From Xestospongia bergquistia (lineage: Eukaryota; Porifera; Demospongiae; Haplosclerida; Petrosiidae), in the NCBI GenBank assembly GCA_963965975.1, contig OZ014417.1, positions 806,001-870,000 of the forward strand: DNA of 64,000 nt. The letters are read 5' to 3'. This document shows positions 36,643-63,863 of this stretch, one piece after another. Every line of letters starts with the position of its first letter. The stretch's first letter is position 1. Position numbers and translations under genes: made by a program. The notes beneath the pieces were generated by a model. That model searched no databases, was not told the origin of the DNA, and was given only the letters and a program-made list of their open reading frames with translations.

Positions 36643-38889
36643 ATGGCAGATATACTGCAAGAATTATGTGACTATGAGAAGAGAAGAATGGAGAATGTTG
36701 AAAAGAATATTGAACTCATGAAAACTTTAGGTATAATACTATTGTATGGTAAATAAAAGTCATAAAGATTGTGTAGGTTTAGATGTTAAGTCCCAAAAAA
36801 AGAGTAGAATTAGAAAAAGGAGAAGGAGACAATATAGTAATTGTAATAATAGTAGCAATGACAGTGGAGATGAATGGACACCTGCTCTAGAGACTTGTGT
36901 GACAAGGGGAAAAAATAATGTCATGAAAGGTAACAAATTGATAGCTAAAATATGAACAACATTCTTTGTGTTTAGATCACCAAGTTACAAGAGCCTTGAA
37001 GCGAAAAAAACCACAGCGGAAGAAATATTACATACCTGTAGAGAGGGAGGAGCCTTCATTTGAGAGTGTCGATTGCAAGTTGTGTAATGATTTTTCTGAG
37101 TTATTTGGAGATGATAATAATAAAGAATATGAAGACTTTGAAGGATTTGATATTGAAGATGTGTAAGTTAGATTATATCAGTATTGATGATATATTTTTT
37201 AATGCAGTAGTAATGTACCTCAGTATCCGGTTAATGAACGATATCCTAAAAGATTAATTCAACAAAAAGAATACAGAGAAGATGAACTATCTGATGAAGA
37301 TGAATATCTCTGTAAGTTCAGTATCAATATGGTTACTTCTACAACTTTTGTTACTAGTTTGTGACAACTGTGAAGAAATTCATTATGGTGATTGTCCTGT
37401 TCATGGACCCTTACTAACTCTAGATCCTTCTAGTGGTCATGATGAAGCATCTCTACAATACACTACTGTATTTGTTCCATCTGAATTAACTGTTAAACCT
37501 TCTAAGATAGCCAATGCTGGTCTGGGTGTTTTTGCTACACAGTTTATACCTCGTGGAGTTAGGTTTGGTCCTTTTGAAGGAAGGAGAGTGTTAAAAGAAG
37601 AGCTCACTAAAGGAGAAGATACTAGCTACATGTGGGAGGTACTGTAAGAAAATATTTAAAAAGTATTATTTGTTTTAATTCATTCAGGTGAAGCGCATTG
37701 GAGAGAGGTCATACTATATTGATGGTCAATCAGATAAGCAAAGTAATTGGTTACGATTTGTCAACTGTCCTCAAAATGTAGATGAACAGAATTTAGTTGC
37801 ATTTCAGTATCATGGTAACATCTATTATCGCTCATTGAAGCATATTTATCCTGGTAATGAACTCTATGTATGGTATGGTAAACAATATGCAAGAGAACTT
37901 GGGATTACAGCTAGTTTTAAAGAAAGTAGGGTAATTCTTTTGGCAGAAATAAAATTTATTATCTATTTTTAGATGATTGTCAACGTTTTAATTGCAAAAA
38001 TTGTGGGAGTAGTTTTGTTTTGAAAGTGAATTTTGATTTGCATCTTCGACATAATCCTAATTGTCTTGCTGCTAATCCTCAATGTTTTACTTGTCAAAAA
38101 TGTCAAGAAAACTTTTGTGAATTGTATCAGTTACAAAACCATATTCGTAAACATGAGCAACTTGGAAGAAATCATAAAAAAGAACTCATTTCCAATGATA
38201 AACTGCTAGTTGAGAGTGCAGATAATATGTGTGATTATTGTGGAAAGAAACTTTCTTGTCAGTCATCATTGAGAATTCATCTGCGTATACACACTGGAGA
38301 AAAACCTTACCAATGTCAGTACTGTGGAAAAAGATTTAGTCATAATGGTAATCTCCGAGTTCATCTTCGTATACATACTGATGATAAACCTTACCAATGT
38401 CAGTACTGTGAAAAAGGATTTCGTCATAATCATCATCTCCAAATGCATCTTCGTATACACACTGGTGATAAACCTTACCAATGTCAGTACTGTAGAAAAG
38501 AATTTACTAATAATAGTAATCTCCAAACACATCTTCGTATACACACTGGTGCAAAACCTTACCATTGTCAGTTCTGTGGAAAAGGATTTCGTCATAATCA
38601 TCATCTCCAAGCTCATCTTTGTATACACACTGGTGATAAACCTTACCAATGTCAATACTGTGTAAAAAGATTTAGTGAGAGTAGTGGTCTCCAAAGACAT
38701 CTTCGTATACACACTGGTGATAAACCTTACCAATGTAAGTACTGCAGAAAAAAATTTAATCAAAGCAGTAGTCTCCAAACTCATGTCCGTATACACACTG
38801 GTGATAAACCTTACCAATGTCAGTACTGTGGAAAAAGATTTAGTCAGAATGGTAGTCTCCAAACTCATATTAATATTCATTTAAAATAA
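36643..38889 (+). CDS. PRDM9-like gene, copy A (KRAB-like, PR/SET, 8-finger array)
   Basis: Seven exons with good borders and phase: 36643-36730, 36777-36929, 36976-37162, 37208-37311, 37358-37638, 37688-37925 and 37973-38889; predicted 655 residues. A KRAB-like helix at about 9-30 (DYEKRRMENVEKNIELMKTLG region) leads into a basic stretch and DSGDEWTP (58-65). A zinc knuckle at about 179-193 (CDNC..DCPVHGPL) precedes the PR/SET domain (about 205-350): GLGVFATQFIPRGVRFGP, YYIDG, NWLRFVNC, EQNLVAFQYHGNIYYRS and PGNELYVWYG..YARELGI. Two isolated fingers (about 355-410) precede eight tandem C2H2 fingers (437-655). Domain order and sequence match PRDM9/Meisetz, a histone H3K4/K36 methyltransferase that in mammals sets recombination hotspots. 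Recognition helices (-1 to 6): CQSSLRI, HNGNLRV, HNHHLQM, NNSNLQT, HNHHLQA, ESSGLQR, QSSSLQT, QNGSLQT. The last finger ends cleanly (HINIHLK then stop). The role in a sponge is not known. Confidence 0.92.
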
Positions 38890-38965
38890 TTAATTACTAT
38901 TTTTGCTAATTATTTACATATACATTAGTCTTTATTAAGTTACCATAGTAATAACATTACACAAA

Positions 38966-39353
38966 CAATGGATAATACAGATCTAGTGAGGTTAAAGTAG
39001 CTCCAGGGTGACTAGTCCCAAAGTTCCAGTTGCACAGTAACAGAATGCAGTGTCACTGTTTAAGGAGGAATAAGTGAAGTCAAGTTAACACCTCTAACCA
39101 GTGATAGTGGTGCTTCTTTTACAATTAAAGTAGGTGTAAATTGTTTGTAGCTAGACTTTTCAAGTCTTACTAATTCTAGGGAGATGCTACAAGTAAAACA
39201 GTTCAGTTAACTGAAGGTACTACATTAATGATAGAGATCGTTGTCACTGCTGAAGAAGGTCTTTCAACTAAAACTTACACAATATCTATACAACGTTTAT
39301 CATCCAGTGATGCTTGCCTCTCTCAACTAGATGTATCAGCTGGCTCTCTGTAA
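38966..39353 (+). pseudogene. Relic of a cadherin-like beta-sandwich (PF12733-type) domain, A interval
   Basis: Two exon-like blocks remain. The first (about 38966-39140) is frameshifted. The second (39182-39353) is clean: ATSKTVQLTEGTTLMIEIVV, EGLSTKTYTISIQRLSS, SDACLSQLDVSAGSL, then stop. The YTISIQR..SS.A.LS.LDVS.G pattern is typical of the cadherin-like beta-sandwich repeat. Blocks of the same origin recur after every PRDM9-like copy. Confidence 0.72.
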
Positions 39354-39424
39354 TTAAATTACTTTACAAGTTAAAACCATTGTTAAGTTAATTATAATGA
39401 TTGTAAAAAATAATTATGTCATTT

Positions 39425-39870
39425 TACAATAGAAATGAATTATGACGGTAAAAAGAATGTTTTAAGTCAATTTATTGAAATATTCCTGACAAGAAGAGCA
39501 ATAGTAAAACTGAAATGAAAGTAAAAACAAAAGAGGACAAACAAAGTATAAAGACAATAGAATAATCTCAATATGTAGAGGATAATACTCAAAATGATGT
39601 TATATATAGTGTAGTAGATAATGAAGAATCTAGAGAACTGTCATCAGATTTATCACCTGAACATGATGATAAACAACTCAATGGATCATAGTGATAATCT
39701 TTATAAAAGTGTAGCCAGTGTTGTTGAGGAGAGTCAAGAGGAGAAAAGATGACGTTTGTTTGCTAAAAGAACAAATGAAGATACTGCTATGTCTGCTAAA
39801 GAAAGATATTTAGCTTGTAAGAGAACAAAACTATCACAACCTACAATTTCAACCAATGACTTCTTAATAT
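39425..39870 (+). pseudogene. Dead copy of the NSRP1 3' end (before PRDM9-like copy B)
   Basis: The block matches the last NSRP1 exon and part of the preceding intron. It has an in-frame TAA within the IKTIE(L)SQ region, a frameshift before MDHSDNL, and a TGA at the EEKRR site. The NSRP1 start and core exons are absent. Confidence 0.88.
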
Positions 39871-40012
39871 TTTTCTAAATAATAATAATTATTAAATTAA
39901 TTTATTTTTGATAAGAGACAATAAAGTTTTAGTGGAAGGGGCTAGTCTTTTTAACGACAATATTGTAATGGTCTCTTATATTGTTTACCAGCTCTAGTCT
40001 GAGTTGTTCAAA

Positions 40013-40080
40013 ATGGTAGATGTAACGTAAGAATTATGTGACTATGAAAAGAGGAGACTAGTAAATATTAAAAGAATATA
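40013..40080 (+). pseudogene. Dead extra copy of PRDM9-like exon 1, upstream of copy B
   Basis: A second, earlier copy of exon 1 (ATG at 40013), with its conserved 5' block. It reads MVDVT then TAA, then ELCDYEKRR, and lies about 375 bp before the intact exon 1 of copy B. The following 300 bp (40081-40387) are shared with the C interval (about 45496-45829) and hold nothing recognised. Confidence 0.8.
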
Positions 40081-40387
40081 TACAATGACTATCATTGTTA
40101 TAAATTATTAAACACAAATAAATAAATACAAATACATCTGGAGACTGCTATAAAGAAAATGACTACAACTTTCTCCTCTCAAATGACTTTTTGATAGCAC
40201 ACAAACTAGACAGAGTAACATCCCAACTATTAAAACAAAGTACTACGAGGTGTCAAGTGTAGCAGGAAGTCTTGTGACCTTCAACTATAATAAGATTCAT
40301 AGTTGACCAGAGTTTGTTAGACGTTCCCTCCCCTTGCATAACGTTTGGCTTCGAGACAAGTTTACCAGCTAGTCTGACGTGTTCAAA

Positions 40388-42915
40388 ATGGCAGATGTAA
40401 TGCAAGAATTATTTGACTATGAGAAGAAAAGACTAGAAAATGTTGAAAAGAATATTGAAGTCATGAAAACTTTAGGTTAAATAATATTGCAAGATGAATA
40501 AAAAGTCATAAAGATTGTGTGTTTAGATGTTAAGTCCCAAAAGAAGAGTAGAGTCAGAAAAAGGAGAAGGAGGCAATATATTAATTGTAGTAATAGTAGC
40601 AGTGATAGTGGAGATGAATGGACACCTGCTCTAGAGACTTGTGTGATGAAGAAAAAAACAAATGATGTCACAAAAGGTAATAAACATGTAAATTAAAGAT
40701 GGACATCATTCTTTTGTGTTTAGATCACCAAGTTACAAGAATCTTGAAGCAGCAAAAAACACAGCAGAAGAAATATTACAAACCTGTAGAGGGGGAGGAC
40801 CCTTCATTTGAGAGCCTTGATTGCAAGTTGTCTTACAAGTTTTTTGAGTTATTTGGAGATGATAATAATGAAGAATATGAAGACTTTGAAGGATTTGATA
40901 TTGAAGATGTGTAAGTTAGATTATATCAGTATTGATGATATTGTTTTCTTAATACAGTGGTGATGTACCTCAGTGTCTAGTTAGTGAACAATATCCTAAG
41001 AGATTAAGTCATCAAAAAGAATACAGAGAAGATAAAGTATCTGATGAAGATGAATATCTCTGTAAGTTTAGTATCAATATGGTTACTTCTATAAGTTTTG
41101 TTACTAGTTTGTGACAACTGTGAGGAATTTCATCATGGTGACTGTCCTGTACATGGACCTTTATTAACTCTAGATCCTTCTAGTGGTCATGATGAAGCAT
41201 CTCTACAATATACTAGTATATTTGTTCCATCTGAATTAACTGTTAAACCTTCTAAGATACCCAATGCTGGTCTTGGTGTTTTTGCTACACAGTTTATACC
41301 TCGTAGAGTTAGGTTTGGTCCTTATGAAGGAAGGAGAGTGTTAAAAGAAGAGCTCACTAAAGAAGAAGACACTAGCTACATGTGGGAGGTACTGTAAGAA
41401 AATATTTAAAAAGTATTATTTGTTTTAATTCATTCAGGTGAAGCGCATTGGAGAGAGGTCATACTATATTGATGGTCAATCAGATAAACAAAGTAATTGG
41501 TTACGATTTATTAACTGTGCTCGCAATGTAGATGAACAGAATTTAGTTGCTTTTCAGTATCATGGTAACATCTATTATCGCTCATTGAAGCATATCTATC
41601 CTGGTAATGAACTCTATGTATGGTATGGTGAACAATATGCAAGAGAACTTGGGATTACAACTAGCTTTGAAGAAGGTAGGGTAATTCTTTTGACAGAAAT
41701 AAAATTTATTATCTATTTTTAGATGATTATCAACTTTATAATTGCAAAAGTTGTGGGAGTAGTTTTGTTTTGAAAGGTAATTTTAATTTGCATCTTCGAC
41801 ATAATCCTAATTGTCTTGCTGCTAATCCTCAATGTTTTACTTGTCAAAAATGTCAAGAAAGTTTTTGTGAATTATATCAGTTACAAGACCACATTCGTAA
41901 ACATGAGCAACTTGATGTAAAAATAAAAAATAAAAAAAGGATCATTTCCAATGGTAAACTGCTAGTTGAGAATGCAGATAATATATGTGATTATTGTGGA
42001 AAGAAATTTTCTCGTCAGTCATCGTTGAGGACTCATCTTCATATACACACTGGTGATAATCCTTACCAATGTCAGTATTGTGGAAAAGGATTTAGTCATA
42101 ATGGTAGTCTCCGAAAACATCTTTCTATACACATGGGTGATAAATCTTACCAATGTCAGTACTGTGGAAAAAGATGTAGTGATAAGAGTAATCTCCGTAA
42201 ACATCTTCATATACACACTGGTGATAAACGTTACCAATGTCAGTACTGTGGAAAAGATTTTTATCAGAATAATGATCTCCAAAGACATCTTTATACACAC
42301 ACTGGTGATAAACCTTACCAATGTGAGTATTGTGGAAAACGATTTAGTCAGAATGGTAGTCTCCAAAGACATCATCATATACACACTGGTAATAGACCTT
42401 ACCAATGTCAGTACTGTGGAAAAGGATTTAGTCAGAATGGTAGTCTCCAAACTCATCTTCGTACACACACTGGTGATAAACCTTACCAATGTCAGTACTG
42501 TGGAAAAGAATTTATTCAGAATAGTAATCTTAAAAAACATCTTCGTAGCCACACTGGTGATAAACCTTACCAATGTCAGTACTGTGGAAAAGGATTTAGC
42601 CAGAATTGTCATCTTCAAACTCATCTTCGTATACACACTGGTGATAAACCTTACCAATGTCAGTACTGTGGAAAAGGATTTAATCAAAGCTTTAATCTCC
42701 AAACTCATCTTCGTATACACACTGGTGATAAACCTTACCAATGTCAGTACTGTGGAAAAAGATTTAATCAAAGCTGTAATCTCCAAACTCATGTTCGTAT
42801 ACACACTGGTGATAAACCTTACCAATGTCAGCACTGTGAAAAAAGATTTAATCATAGTAGTAGTCTCCAAACTCATCTTCGTATACACACTGGTGATAAA
42901 CATTACCAACGTTAG
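40388..42915 (+). CDS. PRDM9-like gene, copy B (11-finger array)
   Basis: Same seven-exon layout as copy A, with all frames open through the PR domain. N-terminus MADVMQELFDYEKKRLENVE; then DSGDEWTPALETCV; zinc knuckle CDNC..FHHGDCPVHGPL; PR domain GLGVFATQFIPRRVRFGP (Gly-to-Arg relative to A), NWLRFINCARN, EQNLVAFQYHGNIYYRS and YVWYGEQYARELGI. Recognition helices: RQSSLRT, HNGSLRK, DKSNLRK, QNNDLQR, QNGSLQR, QNGSLQT, QNSNLKK, QNCHLQT, QSFNLQT, QSCNLQT, HSSSLQT. A 12th finger is cut by a deletion of about 11 bp that brings a TAG at 42913-42915; its helix remnant (YNGNLQR) is readable out of frame to about 42967. Probably functional apart from the lost last finger. Confidence 0.9.
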
Positions 42916-43044
42916 AAAAAGATTTAATTATAATGGTAATCTCCAAAGATATCTTTGTATTCATCTAAAAAAATTAGTGACCATTTTTGATAATCATTTA
43001 CGTATATATACATTAGACTTTATTAAGTTACCATAGTAACAACA

Positions 43045-43200
43045 CTACACAAACAATGGACAATACAGATCTAGAGAAGTTAAAGTAGTTCCAGGACAAC
43101 TAGTCCCAGAGATCCAGAGCACAGTAACAGAATATAGTGTCATATAGTGTCATTGTAGCTAGTGGAATAGTGAAGTCTAATGAACCTATGACTGTAGTGT
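43045..43200 (+). pseudogene. Cadherin-like beta-sandwich relic, first block (B interval)
   Basis: It matches the first block of the A interval (TDLEKLK.VPG.LVP, then a TVTEYSV-like stretch) with stops and deletions. Its second block lies displaced at about 44595-44740, split off by the integrase-bearing insertion between them. Confidence 0.65.
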
Positions 43201-43238
43201 TTCTAGTACAATTTATGTATAACTTTTTTTTTGCTTAG

Positions 43239-43296
43239 CAGTTTATACCTCATGGAGTTAGGTTTGGTCCTTATGAAGGAAGGAGAGTGTTAAAAC
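43239..43296 (+). pseudogene. Stray PR-domain fragment, B interval
   Basis: About 57 bp match the centre of the PR exon (QFIPHGVRFGPYEGRRVLK), preceded by TTGCTTAG. It is not part of any intact gene. An equivalent fragment is at 48667-48716 after copy C. Confidence 0.85.
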
Positions 43297-43369
43297 TACT
43301 ATACATAGTTAAATACATACAATCTCAAAGTGAACAATTAAGGATTGTGAAACACATTACAGTAATCCA

Positions 43370-43915
43370 AACAGGTACATATTGGGTAAAACAATAAAAC
43401 AAATCAGGGAATTATTTATGTGGAAAGGTATATGGAATGATGTCAAAGAAATGGGAAATTTGTTTAGAGTTAGCATTATTTTATATCAACACATGCAGGT
43501 TTCTACCATTAATGAATATCATAGGATGAACAATAACCTAATTGTCATTAACAGAGAGCTTCATCCAATACCAGCACATTCTCCATGGTACCATGTAGCA
43601 ATTGACTTCGTCAGTCCAATAGGAATCATTTTATCTCAATGTATCATATTATTTTACAATATAGGAAGAGTCCGTTCCCTTGCCTAGTAAATCTGCCCAT
43701 GGTGTCACTGAAACTTTATTCAAGGTAACGATCATTATTAAAAGTAAAATATAATTCATATGCATATTTGCCACAGATTTTTATAAGAATGGGTCTTCCT
43801 AAACTGTTGACAAGTAACTAAGGCAGAGTTTAGATGCCAACTTGACAAAGATCTTATAAAACTTCCTGGCATAAAGTGACACCATACCACACCCTATCAT
43901 CCACAGGTATGTGTA
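43370..43915 (+). mobile_element. Ty3/gypsy-type integrase remnant, B interval
   Basis: Broken frames read as the zinc-binding and catalytic core of a retrotransposon integrase: IRELFMWKGIWNDVKEM, INRELHPIPAHSPWYHVAID (with FVSPI next), then in another frame PLPSKSAHGVTETLFK. Several frameshifts and stops are present. No LTR, gag or RT was found nearby. A paralogous remnant is at 48790-49375, so the insertion predates the B/C duplication. Confidence 0.75.
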
Positions 43916-44094
43916 ATCAGTTGCTTATGGCATACTGTTATTATATGTGAAATTGAATAGACAAATAGATTAGATGAAAGGTGGAATCTAATACTTAAAT
44001 GTTGGTGAAGTTTACTCACGACAAGAAACATGAATGTGATTTATTTTAAGAGACATGTATGTTTGTATATATATATAATATCCAAGAATTAGTC

Positions 44095-44335
44095 CTCTCT
44101 TCATACTCCATTTGAACTTATCTTTAGTAGTAGAGATGTCATATTAATTGATGTTGAAAGAGAGACTTTTTCAGCTACAGAGAGAGAGATTAGTTCTGCA
44201 TCAAACAAACTTACATAATCTTTAAATTCTGTTCCCTCAGGTATACCAGGAAAGTAAGCATATATACTTTGTGGTCCAACAGGAGCTGGTTTCTTTCCTG
44301 GCTTCTTGCCATGATCTTTAAAATGTTGCATAAAG
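44095..44335 (-). other. Open frame of unknown function, probably part of the insertion (B interval)
   Basis: A minus-strand frame of 76 codons contains KKPGKKPAPVGPQSIYAYFP and GIPEGTEFKDYVSLFDAELI. I do not recognise it. A diverged copy with an insertion is at about 49560-49830 in the C interval. It may be an exon fragment carried with the integrase debris. Confidence 0.45.
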
Positions 44336-44740: not shown

Positions 44741-44805
44741 TCACAATGATTGTTAAGTTAGTTACAATGATTGTTAAATATAATTATGTTAATCTTACAA
44801 TAGAG

Positions 44806-45829: not shown

Positions 45830-48370
45830 ATGGCAGATGTAATGCAAGAATTATGTGACTATGAGAAGAGAAGACTAGAAAATGTTGAAAAGAATATTGA
45901 AGTCATGAAAACTTTAGGTTAAATAATATTGCAAGATGAATAAAAAGTCATAAAGATTGTGTGTAGGTTTAGATGGCAAGTCCCAAAAGAAGAGTAGAGT
46001 TAGAAAAAGGAGAAAGAGGCAATATAATAATTGTAGTAATAGTAGCTGTGATAGTGGAGATGAATGGACAGCTGATCTAGAGACTTGTGTGATGAAGAAA
46101 AAAACAAAAGACATGAGAGGTAATAAACTTGTCAATAAAATATGGTCACCATTCTTTTGTGTTTAAATCACTAAGTTACGAGAGTCTTGAAGCAGCAAAA
46201 AACACAACAAAAGAAATATTACCAACCTATAGAGGGGGAGGAGCCTTCATTTGAGAGCCTTGATTGCAAGTTGTCTAATAAATTTTCAGAGTTATTTGGA
46301 GATGATAATAATGAAGAATATGAAGACTTTGAAGGATTTGATATTGAAGATGTGTAAGTTAGATTATATCAGTATTGCTGATGTTTTTTCTTAATACAGT
46401 GGCGATGTACCTCAGTGTCCAGTTAGTGAACAATATCCTAAGAGATTATTTCACCAAAAAGAATACAGAGAAGATGAACTATCTGATGAAGATGAATATC
46501 TCTGTAAGTTCAGTATCAATATGGTTACTTCTACAACTTTTGTTACTAGTTTGTGACAACTGTGAGGAATTTCATCATGGTGACTGTCCTGTTCATGGAC
46601 CCTTACTAACTCTAGATCCTTCTAGTGGTCATGATGAAGCATCTCTACAATACACTAGTGTATTTGTTCCAGCTGAATTAACTGTTAAACCTTCTAAGAT
46701 ACCCAATGCTGGTCTGGGTGTTTTTGCTACACAGTTTATACCTCGTGGAGTTAGGTTTGGTCCTTATGAAGGAAGGAGAGTGTTAAAAGAAGAGCTCACT
46801 AAAGGAGAAGATACTAGCTACATGTGGGAGGTACTGTAATAAAATAATAAAAAAGTATTAACTAGTTATATTTTATTCAGGTAAGGCGTTTTGGAGAGAG
46901 GTCATATTATATTGATGGTCAATCAGATAAGCAAAGTAATTGGTTACGATTTATTAACTGTGCTCGCAATGTAGATGAACAGAATTTAATAGCTTTTCAG
47001 TATCTTGGTAACATCTATTATCGTTCATTCAAGCATATCTATCCTGGTAATGAACTCTATGTATGGTATGGTGAACAATATGCAAGAGAACTTGGGATCA
47101 TAACTAGTTTTGAAGAAGGTAGGGTAATTCTTTTGGCAGAAATAAAGTTTACTATTTATTTTTAGATGATTGTCAACTTTATATTTGCAAAAATTGTGGA
47201 AGTAGTTTTGTTTTGAAAAGTAATTTTGATTTGCATCTTCGACATAATCCTAATTGTCTTGCTGCTAATCCTCAATGTTTTACTTGTCTAAAATGTCAAG
47301 AAAGTTTTTGTGAATTGTATCAGTTACAAGACCACATTCGTAAACATGAGCAACTTGATGTAAAAGAAATAAATAAAAAAAAGCTCATTTCCAATGATGA
47401 CATGCTAGTTGAGAATGCAGATAATATGTGTGATTATTGCGGAAAGAAGTTTTCTCGTCACTCATCATTGAGGACTCATCTTCGTATACACACTGGTGAT
47501 AATCCTTACCAATGTCAGTATTGTAGAAAAGGATTTAGTCATAATGGTAGTCTCCGAAAACATCTTCTTATACACACTGGTAATAGACCTTACCAATGTC
47601 AGTACTGTGGAAAAGGATTTAGTCAGAATGGTAGTCTCCAAACTCATCTTTGTATACACACTGGTGATAAACCTTACCAATGTGAGTACTGTGGAAAAAG
47701 ATGTAGTAATAAGAGTAATCTCCGCAAACATCTTCGTATACACACTGGTGATAAACGTTACAAATGTGAGTACTGTGGAAAAAGATTTAGCCAGAATTTT
47801 AATCTCCAAACTCATCTTCGTATACACACTGGTAATAGACCTTACCAATGTCAGTACTGTGGAAAAGGATTTAGTCAGAATGGTAGTCTCCAAACTCATC
47901 TTTGTATACACACTGGTCATAAACCTTACCAATGTGAGTACTGTGGAAAAAGATGTAGTAATAAGAGTAATCTCCGCAAACATTTTCGTATACACACTGG
48001 TGATAAACATTACAAATGTGAGTACTGTGGAAAAGATTTTTATCAGAATATTGATCTCCAAAGACATCTTTGTACACACACTGGTGATAAACCTTACCAA
48101 TGTCAGCACTGTGAAAGAAGATTTAATCAAAGTAGTAGTCTCCAAACTCATCTTCGTATACACACTGGTGATAAACCTTACCAATGTCAATACTGTGGAA
48201 AAAGATTTAATCATAATAGTAATCTTCAAAGACATCTTCGTATCCACACTGGTGATAGACCTTACCAATGTCAGCACTGTGAAAGAAGATTTAATCAAAG
48301 TAGTAGTCTCCAAACTCATCTTCGTATACACACTGGTGATAAACATTACCAAAGTTGGAAAAAGATTTAA
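45830..48370 (+). CDS. PRDM9-like gene, copy C (11-finger array)
   Basis: Same layout as A. Exon 1 is MADVMQELCDYEKRRLENVE. Exon 3 is unusual: the acceptor TTTAG is now TTTAA at about 46162-46166 and the CAA codon after it is TAA. The next AG, 9 nt downstream at 46172-46174, would splice in frame and skip the stop, removing three residues. The PR domain is intact (RRFGERSYYIDG, NWLRFINCARN, EQNLIAFQYLGNIYYRS, YVWYGEQYARELGI). Recognition helices: RHSSLRT, HNGSLRK, QNGSLQT, NKSNLRK, QNFNLQT, QNGSLQT, NKSNLRK, QNIDLQR, QSSSLQT, HNSNLQR, QSSSLQT. The QNGSLQT-NKSNLRK pair is repeated, a recent multi-finger duplication. The 12th finger is lost by the same deletion as in B, giving the tail SWKKI then stop. 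Confidence 0.87.
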
Positions 48371-50873: not shown

Positions 50874-53326
50874 ATGGCAGATGTAATGCAAGAATTATGT
50901 GACTATGAGAAGAGAAGAATGGAGAATGTTGAAAAGAATATTGAACTCATGAAAACTTTAGGTATAATATTATTGTATGGTAAATAAAAGTCATAAAGAT
51001 GGTGTAGGTTTAGATGTTAAGTCCCAAAACAAGAGTAGAGTTAGAAAAAGGAGAATGAGACGACATAGTAATTGTAGTAATAGTAGCAGTGATAGTGGAG
51101 ATGAATGGACACCTGCTCTAGAGACTTGTGTGATGAAGAAAAAGCCAAATGATGTTATGAGAGGTAATGAACTTGTCAATAAAATATGGACATCATTCTT
51201 TTTTGATTAGATCACCAATGTAAAAGAATCTTGAAGCAGCAAAAACCACAGCAGAAGAAAAATTACCAAACTATAGAGGGGGAGGAGCCTTCATTTGAGA
51301 GCCTTGATTGCAAGTTGTCTAATAAATTTTCAGAGTTATTTGGAGATGATAATAATGAAGAATATGAAGACTTTGAAGGATTTGATATTGAAGATGTGTA
51401 AGTTAGATTATATCAGTATTGCTGATGTTTTTTTCTTAATACAGTGGTGATGTACCTCAGTATCCAATTAGAGAACTATATCCTAAGAGATTATGTCATC
51501 AAAAAGAATACAGAGAAGATGAACTATCTGATGAAGATGAATATCTCTGTAAGTTCAGTATCAATATGGTTACTTCTACAACTTTTGTTACTAGTTTGTG
51601 ACAACTGTGAGGAGATTCATCATGGTGACTGTCCTGTTCATGGACCCTTACTAACTCTAGATCCTTCTAGTAGTCATGATGAAGCATCTCTACAATACAC
51701 TAGTATATTTGTTCCATCTGAATTAACTGTTAAACCTTCTAAGATAGCCAATGCTGGTCTGGGTGTTTTTGCTACACAGTTTATACCTCGTGGAGTTAGA
51801 TTTGGTCCTTATGAAGGAAGGAGAGTGTTAAAAGAAGAGCTCACTGAAGGAGAAGATACTAGCTACATGTGGGAGGTACTGTAAGAAAATAATACAAATG
51901 TTTTAATTATTTTAATTTTTTTTCAGGTGAAAATATTTGGAGAGGGTTCATATTATATTGATGGTCAATCAGATGAGCAAAGTAATTGGCTACGATATGT
52001 TAACTGTGCTCGCAATGAAGATGAACAGAATTTAATAGCTTTTTAGTATCATGGTAACATCTATTATCGCTCATTGAAGCATATCTATCCTAGTAATGAA
52101 CTCTATGTGTGGTATGGTGAACAATATGCAAGAGAACTTGGGATTACAGCTAGTTTTGAAGAAGGTAGGGTAATTCTTTTGATAGAAATAAAATTTACTA
52201 TCTATTTTTAGATGATTGTCAACTTTATAATTGCAAAAATTGTGGAAATAGTTTTGTTTTGAAAAGTAATTTTGATTTGCATCTTCGACATTATCCTAAT
52301 TGTCTTGCTGCTAATCCTCAGTGTTTTACTTGTCAAAAATGTCAAGGAAGTTTTTATGAATTATATCAGTTACAGAACCACATTCGTAAACATGAACAAC
52401 TTGATGTAAATGTAAGAAATCATAAAAAAGGGCCCATTTCCAATGATAAACTGCTAGTTGAGAATGCAGATAATATGTGTGATTATTGTGGAAAGAAATT
52501 TTCTTGTCAGTCATCATTGAGGACTCATCTTCGTATACACACTGGTGATAATCCTTACCAATGTCAGTATTATGGAAAAGGATTTAGTCATAATGGTAGT
52601 CTCCGTAAACATCTTCCTATACACATGGGTGATAAATCTTACCAATGTCATTACTGTGGAAAAGGATTTAATCGGAATGGTGATCTCCAAAAACATCTTC
52701 GTGTACACACTCATAATAAATCTTGCCAGTGTCAGTACTGTGGAAAAAGATATAGTAATAAGAGTAATCTCCGCACACATCTTCGTATACACACTGGTGA
52801 TAAACCTTATCAATGTGAGTACTGTGGAAAAGGATTTAATCAAAGCTCTACTCTCCAAACTCATCTTCGTATACACACTGGTGATAAACCTTACCAATGT
52901 CAGTACTGTGGAAAAGGATTTAGTCAGAATGGTAATCTCCAAACTCATCTTCGTATACACACTGGTAATAGACCTTACCAATGTCAGTACTGTGGAAAAG
53001 GATTTAGTCGTAATGATAATCTCCAAACTCATCTTCGTATACACACTGGTGATAAACCTTACCAATGTCAGTACTGTGGAAAAGGATTTTGTCGTAATGA
53101 TAGTCTCCAAACTCATCTTCGTATACACACTGGTGATAAACCTTACCAATGTCAGTACTGTGGAAAAGGATTTAGTCAGAATAGTAATCTTCAAACTCAT
53201 CTTCGTATCCACACTGGTGATAAACCTTACCAATGTGAGTACTGTGGAAAAGCATTTAGTGATAATAGTAATCTCCAAACTCATCTTTGTATACATACTG
53301 GTGATAGACCTTACCAATCTCAGTAG
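50874..53326 (+). pseudogene. PRDM9-like gene, copy D (nonsense codon in the PR domain; 10-finger array)
   Basis: Exons 1-5 are open (MADVMQELCDYEKRRMENVE, DSGDEWTPALETCV, a normal zinc knuckle and first PR half). In exon 6 the Gln codon of the AFQYH motif is TAG at 52044-52046, truncating the PR/SET domain; PGNEL is also SNEL. The finger exon remains open: [14 protein letters not shown] (second Cys is Tyr), RNGDLQK, NKSNLRT, QSSTLQT, QNGNLQT, RNDNLQT, RNDSLQT, QNSNLQT, DNSNLQT. An 11th finger is cut by TAC-to-TAG (53324-53326), a lesion shared with copy E. The 5' half resembles A/C while exons 5-7 and the 3' flank resemble E, so the copy is mosaic. A recent pseudogene, or readthrough of a single stop, are the options. 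Confidence 0.88.
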
Positions 53327-53459
53327 TGTGGAAAAGGATTTAGTGGGAATCTTAGTCTCCAAAGTCATGTTCATATTCATCTTAAAAATAATTAACTATT
53401 TTTTTCTAATGTCTATTTATTAACACTTCATTAAGTTACTATAGTGACAACACCACACA

Positions 53460-55765: not shown

Positions 55766-58302
55766 ATGGCACATGTAACGGAACAATTATGCGAGTATGA
55801 GATGAGAAAACTAGAGAAGGTTGAAAAGAATATTGAACCCAAGAAAACTTTAGGTAAAACACTATATTGCATGGTAAATAAAAATTCAAAAAGGTTCTAT
55901 TTTTAGATGTTAAGTCCCAAAAGAAGAGTAGAGTTAGAAAAAGGAGAAAGAGACAATATAATAATTGTAGTAATAATAGTAGTGATAGTGGAGATGAATG
56001 GACACCTGAGCTAGAGGTTTGTGTGACAAAGAAAAAAACAAATGATGTCATGAGAGGTAATAATATATATATAAAAATATGGATTTAATAATGTTTTGTT
56101 CCAGTAGTAATACAGTGTAATATAGGAAAACATGTGGTAAGTATTTGATGTAGATGTAATGTTGTACTATCTCTTTATAATGTTAGGATCATCAAGTGTC
56201 GAGAGTCTTGAAAAAGCAAAAACCACAGCAGAAGAAATTTTACAAACCTTTAAATTTAAATGGGGAGGAACCTATAATTGAGAGCCTTGATTACAAGTTG
56301 TCTAATGAGTTTTTTGTGTTATTTGGAGATGATAATAATGAAGAAGACTTTGAAGGATTTGATATTGAAGATGTGTAAGTTAGATTATATCAGTATTGCT
56401 GATATTTTTTTCTTAATACAGTGGTGATATACCTCAATGTCCAGTTAGTGAACGATATCCTAAGAGATTAAGTCATCAAAAAGAATACAGAGAAGATGAA
56501 CTCTCTGATGAAGATGAATATCTCTGTAAGTTCAGTATCAATATGGTTACTTCTACAACTTTTGTTACTAGTTTGTGACAACTGTGAGGAGATTCATCAT
56601 GGTGACTGTCCTGTTCATGGACCCTTACTAACTCTAGATCCTTCTAGTAGTCATGATGAAGCATCTCTACAATACACTAGTATATTTGTTCCATCTGAAT
56701 TAACTGTTAAACCTTCTAAGATACCCAATGCTGGTTTTGGTGTTTTTGCTACACAGTTTATACCTCGTGGAGTTAGATTTGGTCCTTATGAAGGAAGGAG
56801 AGTGTTGAAAGAAGAGCTCACTGAAGGAGAAGATATTAGCTACATGTGGGAGGTACTGTAAGAAAATAATAAAAATGTTTTATTATTTTAATTTTTTTTC
56901 AGGTGAAAATTTTTGGAGAGGGTTCATATTATATTGATGGTCAATCAGATGAGCAAAGTAATTGGTTACGATATGTTAACTGTGCTCGCAATGTAGATGA
57001 ACAGAATTTAATAGCTTTTCAGTATCATAGTAACATCTATTATCGCTCATTGAAGCACATCTATCCTGGTAATGAACTCTATGTATGGTATGGTGAACAA
57101 TATGCGAGAGAACTTGGGATTACAGCTAGTTTTGAAGAAGGTAAAGTAATTCTTTTGACAGAAATAAAATTTACTATCTATTTTTAGATGATTGTCAACT
57201 TTATAATTGCAAAAATTGTGGAAGTAGTTTTGTTTTGAAAGCCAATTTTGATTTGCATCTTCGACATAATCCTAATTGTCTTGCTGCTAACCCTCAATTT
57301 TTTACTTGTCAAAAATGTCAAGAACGTTTTAGTGAATTGTATCAGTTACAAGACCACATTCGTAAACATGAACAACTTGATGTAAAAGGAAAGAATCATA
57401 AAAAAGGGCTCATTTCCAATGTTAAACAGCTAGTTGAGAATGCAGATAATATGTGTGATTATTGTGGAAAGAAATTTTCTTGTCAGTCATCATTGAGGAC
57501 TCATCTTCGTATACACACTGGTGATAATTCTTACCAATGTCAGTATTGTGGAAAAAGATTTAGTCATAATGGTAGTCTCCGTAAACATCTTCCTATACAC
57601 ATGGGTGATAAATCTTACCAATGTCATTACTGTGGAAAAGGATTTAATCGTAATGGTGATCTCCAAAAACATCTTCGTATACACACTCGTAATAAATCTT
57701 GGCAGTGTCAGTACTGTGGAAAAAGATGTAGTAATAAGAGTAATCTCTGCAAACATCTTCGTATACACACTGGTGATAAACCTTACCAATGTGAGTACTG
57801 TGGAAAAGGATTTAATCAAAGCTGTAGTCTCCAAACTCATCTTCGTATACACACTGGTGATAAACCTTACCAATGTCAGTACTGTGGAAAAGGATTTAAT
57901 CAAAGCTGTAGTCTCCAAACTCATCTTCGTATACACACTGGTGATAAACCTTACCAATGTCAGTACTGTGGAAAAGGATTTAGTCAGAATGGTAATCTCC
58001 AAACTCATCTTCGTATACACACTGGTAATAGACCTTACCAATGTAAGTACTGTGGAAAAGGATTTAGTCGGAATGGTAATCTCCAAACTCATATTCGCAT
58101 ACACACTGGTAATAGACCTTACCGATGTCAGTACTGTGGAAAAGGATTTAGTCAGAATGGTAGTCTTCAAAATCATCTTCGTATCCACACTGGTGATAAA
58201 CCTTACCAATGTGAGTACTGTGGAAAAGCATTTAGTGATAATAGTAATCTCCAAAGACATTTTCGTATCCACACTGGTGATAAACCTTACCAATGTCAGT
58301 AG
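55766..58302 (+). CDS. PRDM9-like gene, copy E (10-finger array, extra micro-exon)
   Basis: Exon 1 differs from A-D (MAHVTEQLCEYEMRKLEKVE). Exon 2 carries DSGDEWTPELEVCV. A 32-nt micro-exon at 56105-56136 (VVIQCNIGKHV with the split codon) is needed to join exon 2 in frame to the DHQVSRVLKKQ exon (56189 onward), since direct joining hits a stop. The PR domain is open: [73 protein letters not shown]. Recognition helices: [70 protein letters not shown]. Fingers 5 and 6 are identical. The 11th finger is cut by TAC-to-TAG (58300-58302), as in D, and stays readable to about 58371. Confidence 0.89.
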
Positions 58303-58434
58303 TGTGGAAAAGGATTTAGTGAGAATCTTAGTCTCCAAAGTCATGTTCATGTTCATCTTAAAAATAATTAACTATTTTTTTCTAATGACTATTTATTAAC
58401 ACTTCATTAAGTTACTATAGTAACAACACTACAC

Positions 58435-58580
58435 AAACAATGGACAATACAGATTTAAAGAAGTCAAAAGTAGTTCCTTGAAAACTAGTTCCAAAGTTCC
58501 AGAGCACAGTAACAGAATATAGTGTTACTGTAGCTAGTGGAGTAAGTGAAGTCAAGTTAACACCTTTAACAATTGTAGAG
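58435..58580 (+). pseudogene. Cadherin-like beta-sandwich relic, first block (E interval)
   Basis: Same as 53460-53600 with minor differences (KFQSTVTEYSVTVASGVSEV region intact). The second block is at about 59740-59890. Confidence 0.7.
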
Positions 58581-58636
58581 GTGTTGTCATGACAACTATT
58601 ATAATATCTAAAATTTGTTCCACCAGATAAAATATT

Positions 58637-58744
58637 GCAAACCATTTTTTATCCTAAATATTGCTGCAGGATTTTGTCACAAATTTATCCAAAGATAAAA
58701 ATTTTGACTTGCAATATTTTGTCCTAGTATAAAAAATGGTTTGG
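58637..58744. repeat. Imperfect inverted repeat, E interval
   Basis: Counterpart of 53662-53775. The left arm has lost 6 bp (TAGGAT region), which weakens the hairpin. Confidence 0.7.
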
Positions 58745-59739
58745 AATACTTTATCCCAGGACAATAAATGTCTTGCTATATTTTAGGATATTATGATTAT
58801 CATTTTGTCTATGTTAGAGGGCTGATAATGGTAACATATTTTAAAAACTGTAATAAACTTTTGAAATTATCTAGAACATTGTACAGAAATTTTATTACGG
58901 TACTAGTTGTCACAAAACCAAAAGGATGATCTTTTTTGATGACTGGTACCTCTTCCAAGACTTCCATGAAGGCATCATTATATTACAATTCAGAACATGT
59001 ACTGCACTGAATCATCTTTAAATCTTTGATCTCTAGCATCTGACATTTGCAGTATATTAGCATTTTTACAATGTTGGTGATTTATGGACTTTTGACCTAC
59101 ATGCCATGAAGAAAAAGGTTTCTTGATTTAAGCAGCTGTACGTGTGAAAGGTGGTCTATCATCATTCGTTGCTCAAATGTATATCTGCCTGCATCATCTC
59201 CCATAGCAAACACTGACACAAAAGTCAGAGCAAAGAGACCACAATCAGATGAGCCAACTTGTGACTGGCAATATCTATATCTATAAAAATAAAATGAAAC
59301 TTAGTGAATAAAAACAGATAAGATATATATATACCTGAAATTGATTTCTTTATGAGTGGAATAATAAAATCACAGGTTGTGATAATGAAGAAGATTGTTA
59401 TTAAAAAACTTTAGATACAGAAACAAGAGGTTGAGATGATACTAAAGGTTGCAATGACAAAGTGAGGGGTGAAGAATTTAGAGATGGAGGTGGTAAAGGT
59501 GGTAGTATAGGAGAAATGGCAGGGGATGGTGATATAATAATAGGAAAGTAAATAGATGTGGATGAATGAAAGTTATAATTTACTTTGAAAGTATCATTTC
59601 GATGAAACTCTGTAGATACAAGAGAGTCTTCAACAACAGAATCTAGGCCTAATGTGATTTAGAAGAATTGTCATAGTCAAAGGATGTTGGAGCAACAGAA
59701 TGATTTACCAATTCTAGGGATATGCTACAAGTAAAACAG

Positions 59740-59890
59740 TTCAGTTAACTGAAGGTACTACATTAATGATAGAGATTGTTGTCACTGCTCAAGATGGTCT
59801 CTCAACTAAAATTTACATAGTGTCTATACAATGTTTATCATCCAGTGATGTTGGCCTCTCTTAACAAACTGAAATAAAAGATGACAAAGT
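59740..59890 (+). pseudogene. Cadherin-like beta-sandwich relic, second block (E interval)
   Basis: QLTEGTTLMIEIVVTAQDGL then STKIYIVSI, with the same terminal changes as the D copy. Confidence 0.65.
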
Positions 59891-60332
59891 CTAAAGACAA
59901 TAGAATTATTTCAACATGTAGAGGATGACACTCTAAATGAATAAATAAATAAATAAATATCACAATAATGTTACAATGTTACAATTATATGTAGTAAAAA
60001 ACATGTAATATATCATGTATATATCTGACACAATATTGTTCTTTTTATTTCTACTGTACTACTTCTATATTTTTCTCACATTCTCAAACAAGGATTTTCT
60101 TTGAGTAGTTAGAGTATCCATAGTGACTATAATATCCTCCTGTATAAAATAATGAAAATTAATGGAAGGCTGTTAGTTATAAATGACGTCTATCACCCAG
60201 TGATGCTTGGCTATCTCAACTTAGTCAACTAGATGCGTATCAACTTGGTTCTCTCCAAAGAAAGTTAGTTACGTATACAATGATTGTTAATTTAGTTACA
60301 ATGATTGTTAAATATAATTATGTTAATCTTAC

Positions 60333-60695
60333 AATAGAGTTGAATGATGTCACTAAACAAAAAATGATTGAAGTCAATTTTATTGAACTATACTTGATAA
60401 GAAGAGCAATAGTAAAACTGAAATAAAAGTAAAAACAAAAGAGGACAAACAAAGTATAAAGACAATAGAATTATTCCAAGACATAGAGCATGAAACTCAA
60501 AATGATATTATAAATAATGTAGTAGATAATGAAGAATCTAGAGAACTGTTATTGAGGACAGTCAAGAGGAAAAGAGACGACGTTTGTTTGCTAACAAAAG
60601 ATACTGCTATGTCTGCTAAAGAAAGATATTTAGTTCGTAAAAGAGCAAAACTATCACAACCTACCATTTCAACAGATGATCCTCTTAACTTGTAA
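60333..60695 (+). pseudogene. Dead copy of the NSRP1 3' end (before PRDM9-like copy F)
   Basis: It keeps the KTKEDKQSIKTIELFQ and EESRELL parts. A large internal deletion then joins to the EKRRRLF region, another deletion removes part of AKRTNED, and TAMSAKERYLVRKRAKLSQP follows. Multiple lesions. Confidence 0.87.
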
Positions 60696-60815
60696 TTAAA
60701 AATAATTATTATTACTTTTTTGGTAAGACCAATAAAATTTTAGTGGGAGAGGCTAGTATTTTTAACGGAAATAGTGGCTGTTATCATGTTTATCAGCTAG
60801 TCTGAGGTGTTCAAA

Positions 60816-63615
60816 ATGGCACATGTAACGGAACAATTATGCGAGTATGAGATGAGAAGACTAGAGAAGAATATTGAACCCAAGAAAACTTTAGGTAAAA
60901 TACTATATTGCATGGTAAATAAAAGTCATAAAGATTGTGTAGGTTTAGATGTCAAGTCCCAAAAGAAGAGTAGAGTTAGAAAAAGGAGAAGGAGACAATA
61001 TATTAATTGTAGTAATAATAGCAATGACAGTGGAGATGAATGGACACCTGATCTAGAGACTTGTGTGATGAAGAAAAAAACAAAAGACATGAGAGGTAAT
61101 AATATATATATAAAAATATGGATTTAATAATGTTTTGTTCCAGTAGTAATACAGTGTAATATAGGAAAACATGTGGTAAGTATTTGATGCAGATGTAATG
61201 TTGTACTATCTCTTTATAATGTTAGGATCATCAAGTGTCGAGAGTCTTGAAAAAGCAAAAACCACAGCAGAAGATATTTTACAAACCTTTAAATTTGAAA
61301 GGGGAGGAACCTATAATCGAGAGCCTTGATTATAAGTTGTCTAATGAGTTTTTTGTGTTATTTGGAGATGATAATAATGAAGAAAATGAAGACTTTGAAG
61401 GATTTGGTATTGAAGATGTGTAAGTTAGATTATATCAGTATTGCTGATGTTTTTTTCTTAATACAGTGGTGATGTACTTCAGTATCCTGTTAGTGAACGA
61501 TATCCTAAGAGATTAATTCACCAAAAAGAATACAGAGAAGATGAACTATCTGATGAAGATGAATATCTCTGTAAGTTTAGTATCAATACGGTTACTTTTA
61601 AAACTTGTATTATTAGTTTGTGACAACTGTGAGGAGATTCATCATGGTGATTATCCTATTCATGGACCCTTACTAACTCTAGATCCTTCTAGTGGTCATG
61701 ATGAAGCATCTCTACAATACACTAGTGTATTTGTTCCATCTGAATTAACTGTTAAACCTTCTAAGATAGCCAATGCTGGTCTGGGTATTTTTGCTACACA
61801 GTTTATACCTCGTGGAGTTAGATTTGGTCCTTATGAAGGAAGGAGAGTGTTAAAAGAAGAGCTCACTGAAGGAGAAGATACTAGCTACATGTGGGAGGTA
61901 CTGTAATAAAATAATAAAAAAGGATTTATTTTTTAAATTATTTAGGTGAAGTGTATTGGAGAGGGGTCATATTATATTGATGGTCGATCAGATAAGCAAA
62001 GTAATTGGTTACGATTTATTAACTGTGCTCGTAATGTAGATGAACAAAATTTAATAGCTTTTCAGTATCGTGGTAACATCTATTATCGCTCGTTCAAGCA
62101 TATCTATCCTGGTAATGAACTCTATGTATGGTATGGTGAACAATATGCAAGAGAACTTGGGATTACAGCTAGTTTTGAAGAAGGTTAAGTAATTCTTTTG
62201 GCAGAAATAAAATTTACTATCTATTTTTAGATGATTGTCAACTTTATAATTGCAAAAATTGTGGAAGTAGTTTTGTTTTGAAAGCCAATTTTGATTTGCA
62301 TCTTCGACATAATCCTAATTGTCTTCCTGCTAATCCTCAATGTTTTACTTGTCAAAAATGTCAAGAAAGTTTTTGTGAATTATATCAGTTACAAGACCAC
62401 ATTCGTAAACATGAGCAACTTGATGTAAAAGGAAAAAATAAAAAAAGGCTCATTTCCAATGATAAACTTCTAATTGAGAATCCAGATAACATGTGTGATT
62501 ATTGTGGGAAGAAACTTTCTTGTAAGTCATCATTGAAGACTCATCTTCATATACACACTGGTGATAATCCTTACCACTGTCAGTATTGTGGAAAAGGATT
62601 TAGTCATAATGGTAGTCTCCGAAAACATCTTCCTATACACATGGGTGATAAACCTTACCAATGTCATTACTGTGGAAAAGGATTTAATCGGAATGGTGAT
62701 CTCCAAAGACATCTTTGTGTACACACTTGTGATAAAACTTGCCAGTGTCAGTACTGTGGAAAAAGACGTAGTAATAAGACTAATCTCTGCAAACATCTTT
62801 GTATACACACAGGTGATAAACGTTACAAATGTCAGTACTGTGGAAAAGGATTTAGTCAGAATGGTAGTCTCCAAAGACATCTTCATATACACTCTGGTGA
62901 TAAACCTTACCAATGTCGTATACACACTGGTGATAAACCTTACCAATGTCAGTACTGTGGAAAAGGATTTAGTGTGAATAGTAATCTCCAAACTCATCTT
63001 CGTATACACACTGGTGATAAACCTTACCAATGTCAGTACTGTGGTAAAGGATTTAATCAAAGCAGTAATCTACAAACTCATGTTCGTATACACACTGGTG
63101 ATAAACCTTACCAATGTCAGTACTGTGGAAAAGGATTTAATCAAAGCAGTAATCTACAAACTCATGTTCGTATACACACTGGTGATAAACCTTACCAATG
63201 TCAGTACTGTGGTAAAGGATTTAGTCGGAATGGTAGTCTCCAAACTCATCTTCGTATACACACTGGTGATAAACCTTACCAATGTCAGTACTGTGGAAAA
63301 GGATTTAGTGTGAATAGTAATCTCCAAACTCATCTTCGTATACACACTGGTGATAAACCTTACCAATGTCAGTACTGTGGAAAAGGATTTAGTCAGAATG
63401 GTAGTCTCCAAACTCATCTTTGTATACACACTGGTGATAAACCTTACCAATGTCAGTACTGTGGAAAAGGATTTAGTCGGAATGGTAGTCTCCAAACTCA
63501 TCTTCGTATACACACTGGTAATAAACCTTACCAATGTCAGTACTGTGGAAAAGAATTTAGTAATAATAGTAATCTCCAAGCTCATGTTCGTATACACACT
63601 GGTGATAAACATTAG
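60816..63615 (+). CDS. PRDM9-like gene, copy F (13-finger array, extra micro-exon, decayed 3' fingers)
   Basis: Exon 1 resembles E but lacks three residues (MAHVTEQLCEYEMRRLEKNI). Exon 2 has DSGDEWTPDLETCV. The 32-nt micro-exon is at 61144-61175. The zinc knuckle differs (HHGDYPIHGP: the Cys before Pro is Tyr). The PR domain is open: [72 protein letters not shown]. Recognition helices: CKSSLKT, HNGSLRK, RNGDLQR, NKTNLCK, QNGSLQR, a 30-bp partial finger, VNSNLQT, QSSNLQT, QSSNLQT, RNGSLQT, VNSNLQT, QNGSLQT, RNGSLQT, NNSNLQA. Translation stops at TAG 63613-63615. The knuckle Cys loss and the 3' decay raise doubt about full function. Confidence 0.87.
62917..62946 (+). repeat. 30-bp partial finger inside the copy F array
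   Basis: Between fingers 5 and 6 the linker and first zinc ligand are repeated in frame ([19 protein letters not shown]). A whole 84-bp unit has lost 54 bp, leaving a 10-residue linker duplication. Confidence 0.88.
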
Positions 63616-63863
63616 TTACCTTACCAATGTCAGTACTGTGGAAAATGATTTAGTCGTAATGGTAGTCTCCAAACTCATGTTTATATACACACTGGTGATA
63701 GACCTTACCAATGTTAGCACTGTGGAAGTAGATTTAATCAAAGCAGTGGTCTCCAAACTCATCTTCATATACACACTGGTGATAAACCTTATTAATGTCA
63801 GTACTGTGGAAAAGAATTTCATCATAATGGTGGTCTTGTTTGTGTTCATCTTAAAAATAATTA
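63616..63863 (+). pseudogene. Three dead zinc-finger units 3' of copy F
   Basis: In-frame continuation of the array contains fingers with helices RNGSLQT, QSSGLQT and HNGGLVC. Each unit carries its own stop (AAA-TGA near 63646, TAG for CAG near 63715, TAA for CAA near 63794). It ends at the ancestral stop after HLKNN. Confidence 0.88.

What the first reader, a model, noticed from the sequence alone, without database searches (positions are those of the whole stretch)
36643..63863. Tandem array of six PRDM9-like genes
Six head-to-tail copies, each with PRDM9 domain order (KRAB-like helix, DSGDEWTP motif, zinc knuckle, PR/SET, 84-bp C2H2 array). Five have open PR domains. PRDM9 is usually one or two copies in vertebrates and sets meiotic recombination hotspots in mammals. 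A six-copy array in what looks like a sponge would put the full architecture, and possibly its rapid evolution, at the base of animals. It may be a sponge system for recombination targeting or for silencing mobile DNA.
Basis: partly seen in the sequence, partly recalled or inferred. Interest (0 to 1): 0.92.

Follow-up and report, generated by a model that had tools for sequence, protein, structure and literature searches.

The report
Large PRDM9-like gene family in sponge
A sponge genome carries dozens of copies of a gene related to PRDM9, the protein that chooses where chromosomes recombine in mammals; many copies look intact and carry different DNA-reading fingers, which makes this a good place to ask what PRDM9 originally did.

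Summary
The window holds six of twelve head-to-tail PRDM9-like genes; the assembly has at least 69 loci with the second PR exon, 46 of them full-length and open. Spliced models join a KRAB-A second-helix motif, DEWTP motif, acidic linker, PRDM9-type zinc knuckle, PR/SET and an 84-bp C2H2 array. The copies are sister to Amphimedon in a sponge clade. Of 32 copies modelled, 25 are open to the proximal fingers, and 20 of these keep three catalytic tyrosines. Array A keeps 11 of 12 copies open; 1.9 expected if neutral. DNA-contact residues are the most diverse finger sites. A CW-PWWP (ZCWPW1/2-like) gene and SPO11 are present.

Against: Pfam finds neither KRAB nor SSXRD; the deep PR tree is weak; sponge PRDM9 is already in print; multi-copy PRDM9 exists elsewhere; Baker's finger statistic (median 0.31) lies below most complete vertebrate PRDM9 and matches multi-copy catfish genes. 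Function (recombination steering or another use) is inferred, not shown. Verdict: a new, very large variant of a known kind.

The parts
36643..38889 (+). PRDM9-like copy A1 (first of the array; PR open; Phe at the Y276-equivalent; 8 fingers after the proximal ones)
40388..42915 (+). PRDM9-like copy A2 (PR open, three catalytic Tyr; 11 fingers)
45830..48370 (+). PRDM9-like copy A3 (PR open with shifted splice acceptor; 11 fingers)
50874..53326 (+). PRDM9-like copy A4 (TAG in PR exon 2: broken)
55766..58302 (+). PRDM9-like copy A5 (PR open, three catalytic Tyr; 10 fingers)
60816..63615 (+). PRDM9-like copy A6 (PR open, three catalytic Tyr; one knuckle Cys is Tyr; 13 fingers)
37489..37906 (+). 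PR/SET domain of A1 (two exons)
41239..41656 (+). PR/SET domain of A2 (two exons)
46681..47099 (+). PR/SET domain of A3 (two exons)
51726..52145 (+). PR/SET domain of A4 (two exons, TAG inside)
56703..57121 (+). PR/SET domain of A5 (two exons)
61748..62164 (+). PR/SET domain of A6 (two exons)
38277..38868 (+). 84-bp C2H2 array of A1
42034..42909 (+). 84-bp C2H2 array of A2
47477..48352 (+). 84-bp C2H2 array of A3
52523..53376 (+). 84-bp C2H2 array of A4
57501..58348 (+). 84-bp C2H2 array of A5
62542..63819 (+). 84-bp C2H2 array of A6, the last fingers lying beyond the stop at 63615
35415..36506 (+). NSRP1-like gene just upstream of A1 (approximate limits, exons not modelled); its 3' end is repeated ahead of other copies and marks the duplicated unit

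Best explanation
A PRDM9 orthologue beside NSRP1 in a demosponge related to Amphimedon was amplified, by tandem and then segmental (partly inverted) duplication, into a family of at least 69 loci that turns over by birth and death. Shown: gene structure, copy number, retained catalytic tyrosines, constraint on PR, diversification of finger contact residues, survival of open frames in array A beyond neutral expectation. Inferred: the intact copies work as DNA-sequence-addressed H3K4/H3K36 methyltransferases in the germ line, each finger array marking its own set of sites, with marks read by the genome's CW-PWWP protein and used by SPO11 to place meiotic breaks. On this reading, targeting is spread over many genes instead of many alleles of one gene.
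For: PR plus knuckle match PRDM9 best; the knuckle with the first part of PR matches only PRDM9 chains in the PDB at E up to 0.001. Host copies are one clade (100/96), sister to Amphimedon (96/88), in a sponge clade (98/98). 25 of 32 modelled copies are open to the proximal fingers (rule); 20 of 25 keep the three tyrosines. PR dN/dS is 0.44 (bootstrap over codons 0.30-0.65, 25 copies). In array A 11 of 12 are open against 1.94 expected under neutrality. Contact positions -1, 2, 3, 6 have the four highest entropies of 28 (276 fingers); pN there is 2.19 times the pooled pS (2.09-2.30), elsewhere 0.63 times. The 30 copies with fingers have 30 different contact signatures. CW+PWWP gene at C9:911075; SPO11-like gene at C9:7063690. 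In vertebrates ZCWPW1/2 presence tracks complete PRDM9 (PMC8892340, passages).
Against: Baker's P (share of finger diversity at contact sites) is only 0.231-0.508, median 0.310, in the 23 of 25 open copies that have a run of four fingers (6 of 23 at or over 0.33), and median 0.328 in 14 of 16 further copies. Complete vertebrate PRDM9 gives 0.331-1.0, multi-copy Ictalurus PRDM9-alpha 0.253-0.320. Against the pS of the contact codons themselves pN/pS is 1.23 only. No Pfam KRAB or SSXRD, and in vertebrates these go with fast-evolving PRDM9. Deep branches of the PR tree are weak, and PRDM6-like/12/14 attach beside the sponges. 23 of 69 loci lack a full-length open PR exon 2. No expression or methylation data. 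CW alone matches MORC3 better than ZCWPW. TEX15 not found, but that search has no positive control.
Confidence: 0.48

Rival explanations
1. A KZFP-like addressing family: duplicated genes each recognise a transposon family and mark or silence it, so expansion follows an arms race with mobile DNA, not hotspot erosion.
For: Large clustered birth-and-death family with diversified fingers, as in KZFP clusters (recalled). A PR-less derivative, KRAB-like N-terminus and knuckle fused to the fingers, exists in two inverted copies on C1. Baker's P is modest, as expected without strong concerted evolution.
Against: PR catalytic tyrosines and PR constraint are kept, and PRDM9 marks are of the active type. 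The KRAB lacks its first half; even human PRDM9 KRAB-A does not bind TRIM28 (PMC8835667, passages). No target search was done.
Confidence: 0.2
2. A regulatory family without a meiotic role, like partial PRDM9 in catfishes: methyltransferase zinc-finger factors whose duplicates diversified for gene regulation.
For: Baker's P overlaps that of Ictalurus PRDM9-alpha; no KRAB or SSXRD by Pfam.
Against: Contact-site pN is twice the pooled pS, unusual for conserved regulators. A CW-PWWP reader and SPO11 are present, though both could serve without PRDM9.
Confidence: 0.2
3. One or a few working PRDM9 genes surrounded by decaying duplicates; the expansion has no function.
For: 23 of 69 loci lack a full-length open PR exon 2; 7 of 32 modelled copies carry a stop or a large loss up to the proximal fingers; PR dN/dS of 0.44 is not very low.
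Against: 11 of 12 copies of array A open against 1.94 expected if neutral; none of 200,000 draws reached 11. The simulation counts stops only, on tip branches that gene conversion could distort, and says nothing on the other arrays.
Confidence: 0.1
4. Assembly artefact (haplotypes or repeats misjoined).
For: Some pairs elsewhere are 98-99% identical, two of them on opposite strands.
Against: The six window copies differ by 5.6-11.6% within an 8.3 Mb contig; copies differ in finger number and signature.
Confidence: 0.02

Closest known systems
PRDM9 (mammals; PRDM9-alpha of fishes)
   Same: PRDM9-type knuckle, PR/SET with three catalytic tyrosines, C-terminal tandem C2H2 array, contact-site diversification, DEWTP motif
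   Different: Dozens of copies; no KRAB or SSXRD that Pfam recognises; diversity less concentrated at contact sites than in most complete vertebrate PRDM9
PRDM9-like proteins of other sponges (Amphimedon P0002, Dysidea P0003/P0004, Ephydatia P0005, Halichondria P0122)
   Same: One clade; Dysidea and Halichondria share the KRAB second helix without the first half
   Different: Far fewer copies seen: one Amphimedon cluster, six Dysidea proteins. These come from capped hit lists, not whole-genome counts
Multi-copy PRDM9-like genes of catfishes (Ictalurus, Neoarius, Trichomycterus)
   Same: Many paralogues, partial PRDM9 without KRAB in Ictalurus, similar Baker P
   Different: Independent vertebrate expansion; 8 genes listed for Ictalurus
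KRAB zinc-finger genes (KZFP)
   Same: Clustered birth-and-death of finger arrays; PR-less derivatives arise here by deletion
   Different: PR kept in most copies read; no TRIM28-type KRAB
PRDM11
   Same: Related PR domain and knuckle
   Different: Lower score (85 against 153 bits); in the tree it falls with vertebrate PRDM9 (100/98)

Membership tests
PRDM9 | PR/SET orthologous to PRDM9 rather than to other PRDMs | tested here: met
   Best PDB match PRDM9, 46 bits over PRDM14; PRDM6-like/12/14 form one side (94/81). Caveats: unrooted, long outgroup branches, few PRDM classes; the outgroups attach beside the sponges (84/86), which fits sponges as first branch of PRDM9 but does not exclude an older split
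PRDM9 | Three catalytic tyrosines (Y276, Y341, Y357) | tested here: met
   20 of 25 open copies; 4 have Phe at the first and 1 at the third. Residue role from PMC5519329; mapping to motifs by counting in PDB chain letters
PRDM9 | Zinc knuckle before PR | tested here: met
   Knuckle with the first part of PR matches only PRDM9 chains; Pfam knuckle below cut-off; A6 lacks one Cys
PRDM9 | KRAB domain | tested here: not met
   No Pfam KRAB hit (at E up to 1; at E up to 10, weak hits mostly filtered). Second KRAB-A helix and DEWTP align with cnidarian, horseshoe crab, abalone, lancelet and ray PRDM9; the F(S/T)K.E(W/L) half is absent, as in both cnidarians aligned. Pfam also misses Limulus, so Pfam alone is weak; a further upstream exon was not searched for
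PRDM9 | SSXRD | tested here: not met
   No Pfam SSXRD hit; only a short block before the knuckle resembles other PRDM9 (by eye)
PRDM9 | Tandem 84-bp C2H2 array | tested here: met
PRDM9 | Fast evolution at finger contact sites | tested here: inconclusive
   Entropy and pN against pooled pS met; Baker's P mostly under the complete-PRDM9 range and not ranked against other C2H2 genes of this genome
PRDM9 | Meiotic expression, H3K4me3/K36me3 activity, hotspot placement | not testable with these tools
   No expression or biochemical data
KRAB zinc-finger (KZFP) | KRAB-A able to bind TRIM28 | tested here: not met
   First half of KRAB-A absent; sequence only, binding not testable
PRDM11 | PR closest to PRDM11 | tested here: not met

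The most novel reading that the evidence does not exclude
This sponge runs dozens of PRDM9 genes at once: a multi-gene, multi-specificity system that addresses chromatin marks to many DNA motifs in meiosis, escaping hotspot erosion by gene number rather than by allele turnover. At the same time it is budding off PR-less KRAB-helix/zinc-finger genes, a parallel at the base of animals to the origin proposed for KRAB zinc-finger genes in vertebrates.
Probability: 0.3. Interest if true: 0.88.

Novelty: new variant of a known kind. Interest (0 to 1): 0.66.

Why it matters
Whether PRDM9 kept its function since the animal ancestor is stated as unknown (PMC13186367, passage). A sponge with 46 full-length open PR exons, varied finger arrays, a CW-PWWP reader and SPO11 makes the question testable outside vertebrates. 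It also shows which part of the KRAB region is shared beyond Bilateria, and gives a case for how a genome with many PRDM9 specificities would meet hotspot erosion.

Tried and rejected
Haplotype duplication was rejected. Grouping with PRDM11 was rejected. A first reading of the linker as frameshifted in five copies was set aside: their acceptor AG is mutated and another AG lies 9 bp downstream (by eye; A3, A8, B3584, B3603, B3931; no transcript supports it). A first exon model without the intron after KTLG was wrong and was replaced by spliced alignment. One search printed its results and then failed on saving; one search failed at the display of the tree; both were repeated. TEX15 was not found, but nothing rang in the controls, so it says nothing. 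COG6 as a taxon marker gave unnamed sequences at the top (96%) and only distant named ones (44%), so 'sponge' rests on the PRDM9 tree and hits. A rank of Baker's P against other C2H2 genes of this genome was not done. Motif prediction from the fingers and a transposon target search were not attempted. Papers: the listings (titles, starts of abstracts) of searches showed none about an expanded PRDM9 family in a sponge; the library holds only openly licensed PMC papers. PMC13186367: abstract, passages, sections 15 and 17, two of four parts of its references. PMC5519329: passages, section 25, part 1 of 2 of section 10. PMC8892340, PMC8835667, PMC2779102: passages. Ponting 2011: nothing seen, cited through PMC13186367.
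Full report
OBSERVATION. The window is C7:806001-870000 of a 146 Mb, 21-contig assembly without names. Spliced alignment to reference proteins made from the family's own exons gives six genes of 2.2-2.8 kb with introns of 45-53 bp. Exon order: a KRAB-like start (of the form MADVMQELCDYEKRRLENVEKNIE.MKTLG), basic region and DSGDEWTP motif, an optional mini-exon, an acidic linker, the block ending DEDEYLFCDNC that starts the zinc knuckle, two PR exons, one exon with proximal C2H2 fingers and the 84-bp array. Five of six PR domains are open; A4 has a TAG.

EXTENT. Twelve copies lie head to tail on C7 from 842.6 to about 901 kb. Merging PR-exon-2 matches gives 69 loci: 12 in this array, 47 on C7 3.43-4.34 Mb, 8 on C1, one each on C14 and C4; one further PRDM (C11, 36% identity) was left out as a different gene. 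Of the 69, 46 have a full-length open exon 2; this is an exon count, not a count of whole intact genes. I fetched and modelled 32 loci and read the finger exons of 16 more, so 21 of 69 were not read. Of the 32, 25 have no stop up to the proximal fingers; the other 7 are A4, C1_1688, C1_1699, C1_1748, C4, B3657 and B4322 (B4322's stop lies behind PR). Of the 25, C14 and B4334 lack the usual start codon, five need the shifted acceptor, and A10 and B3540 lose their frame inside the finger array.

ORIGIN OF THE UNIT. A1 sits just behind an NSRP1-like gene, and pieces of the NSRP1 3' end are repeated ahead of other copies, also on C1 and C14, so the unit probably arose at this locus. Copies of arrays A and B mix in the gene-body tree, while the six C1 copies in it form one clade. 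One C1 pair and one C7 pair on opposite strands are 99% identical, which suggests recent inverted duplications.

IDENTITY. The PR tree was unrooted and used 16 host copies, 8 other sponge proteins, 15 other PRDM9-like proteins, PRDM11, PRDM12, PRDM14 and one PRDM6-like protein. The sponge clade is firm (98/98); the backbone is weak (76/67 at the midpoint). PRDM6-like/12/14 and one moth protein attach on the sponge side (84/86). If the root lies at those outgroups, sponges branch first within PRDM9, as the animals do; the tree alone does not prove it, and the knuckle and architecture carry much of the case. PRDM11 falls with vertebrate PRDM9. In an alignment of ten N-termini the second KRAB-A helix and the DEWTP region share invariant E, R, N, G and W positions in sponges, cnidarians and bilaterians; the F(S/T)K.E(W/L) half appears only in the four bilaterian sequences. 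Either that half was added later or it was lost; ten sequences cannot decide.

SELECTION. PR dN/dS 0.44, linker 0.65, proximal fingers 0.38, mean dS about 0.11 (25 copies). Neutral simulation of stops along tip branches for array A: 1.94 of 12 open expected, 11 observed. Fingers: 276 fingers from 30 copies, 218 distinct, 100 contact quadruplets; entropy at -1, 6, 2 and 3 is 2.98, 2.20, 2.14 and 1.93, the next highest 1.70. pN at contact sites is 0.466, elsewhere 0.134, pooled pS 0.213; pS at the contact codons themselves is 0.378, so the local ratio is only 1.23. Gene conversion violates the assumptions of such ratios on fingers, as PMC5519329 notes, so Baker's P was computed too. It is above the 0.143 expected if diversity were even over 28 sites, but mostly below the range of complete vertebrate PRDM9; A12 (0.508) and a run of A6 (0.472) are the highest. 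With the same script other PRDM9-like proteins range from 0.19 (Branchiostoma) to 0.90 (Haliotis): Dysidea1 0.82 but Dysidea5 0.20, Clytia 0.60, Amphimedon 0.50 with four fingers, Halichondria 0.34, one Bos protein 0.37. This result speaks against a simple equation with hotspot PRDM9 and is given equal weight.

MECHANISM. Shown: the parts, their conservation, their constraint. Inferred: methyltransferase activity from the tyrosines; reading by the CW-PWWP gene; SPO11 recruitment; germ-line use. The retained PR argues against a pure KZFP-type silencer. The modest P and missing KRAB half argue for caution on recombination. The PR-less gene on C1 (knuckle exon joined in frame to the finger exon; C1:1744086 with splice sites intact by eye, its inverted twin at C1:1678794 apparently carrying a shift in an A run) shows that KRAB-helix/finger genes can arise here by one deletion.

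COMPARISON AND NOVELTY. PRDM9 in sponges is in print. Concerted evolution of Prdm9 fingers in a sea anemone, a snail and a worm, with positive selection in the anemone, was reported in 2009 (PMC2779102, passages). New here, as far as the searches named under Tried and rejected show, are the copy number and the combination of many intact PR domains with varied fingers in a sponge.

Noticed in passing
L020 8127-9869 (C1:1743267-1745009) and L023 (C1:1678794): PR-less family member: knuckle exon fused in frame to the finger exon, N-terminal exons kept; two inverted copies.
   Followed up: partly
C9:911075 (L039 1318-2200): CW zinc finger followed by PWWP domain in one gene, the layout of ZCWPW1/2.
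   Followed up: partly
C9:7063690 (L041): SPO11-like gene (TP6A_N match; further exons read by eye).
   Followed up: partly
35415-36506: NSRP1-like gene ahead of A1; its tail is carried along in the duplicated unit.
   Followed up: partly
43334-43687: ORF with a weak integrase H2C2 match (below the Pfam cut-off) between A2 and A3: possible retroelement remnant.
   Followed up: no
C1:1671864 (-) and C1:1739741 (+); C7:3584537 (-) and C7:3931389 (+): Pairs about 99% identical on opposite strands: large inverted duplications or an assembly feature.
   Followed up: no
A1 (37489-37906), C14:3522174, C7:3445854, C7:3540340: Phe in place of the first catalytic tyrosine (FGPFEG) in four open copies; C1:1751868 has Phe at the third.
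   Followed up: partly
32712-34364 (+) and 34447-35148 (-): Flanking genes: COG6 and a LisH-CTLH (GID8-like, name recalled) gene.
   Followed up: partly
63616-63819: Finger remnants continue after the stop of A6, with further stops.
   Followed up: no
Dysidea proteins P0003, P0004, P0126, P0130, P0137, P0165: Dysidea avara has six PRDM9-like proteins in the hit lists; Baker's P runs from 0.20 to 0.82 in the five with a run of four fingers: a mixed set of fast and slow paralogues.
   Followed up: partly
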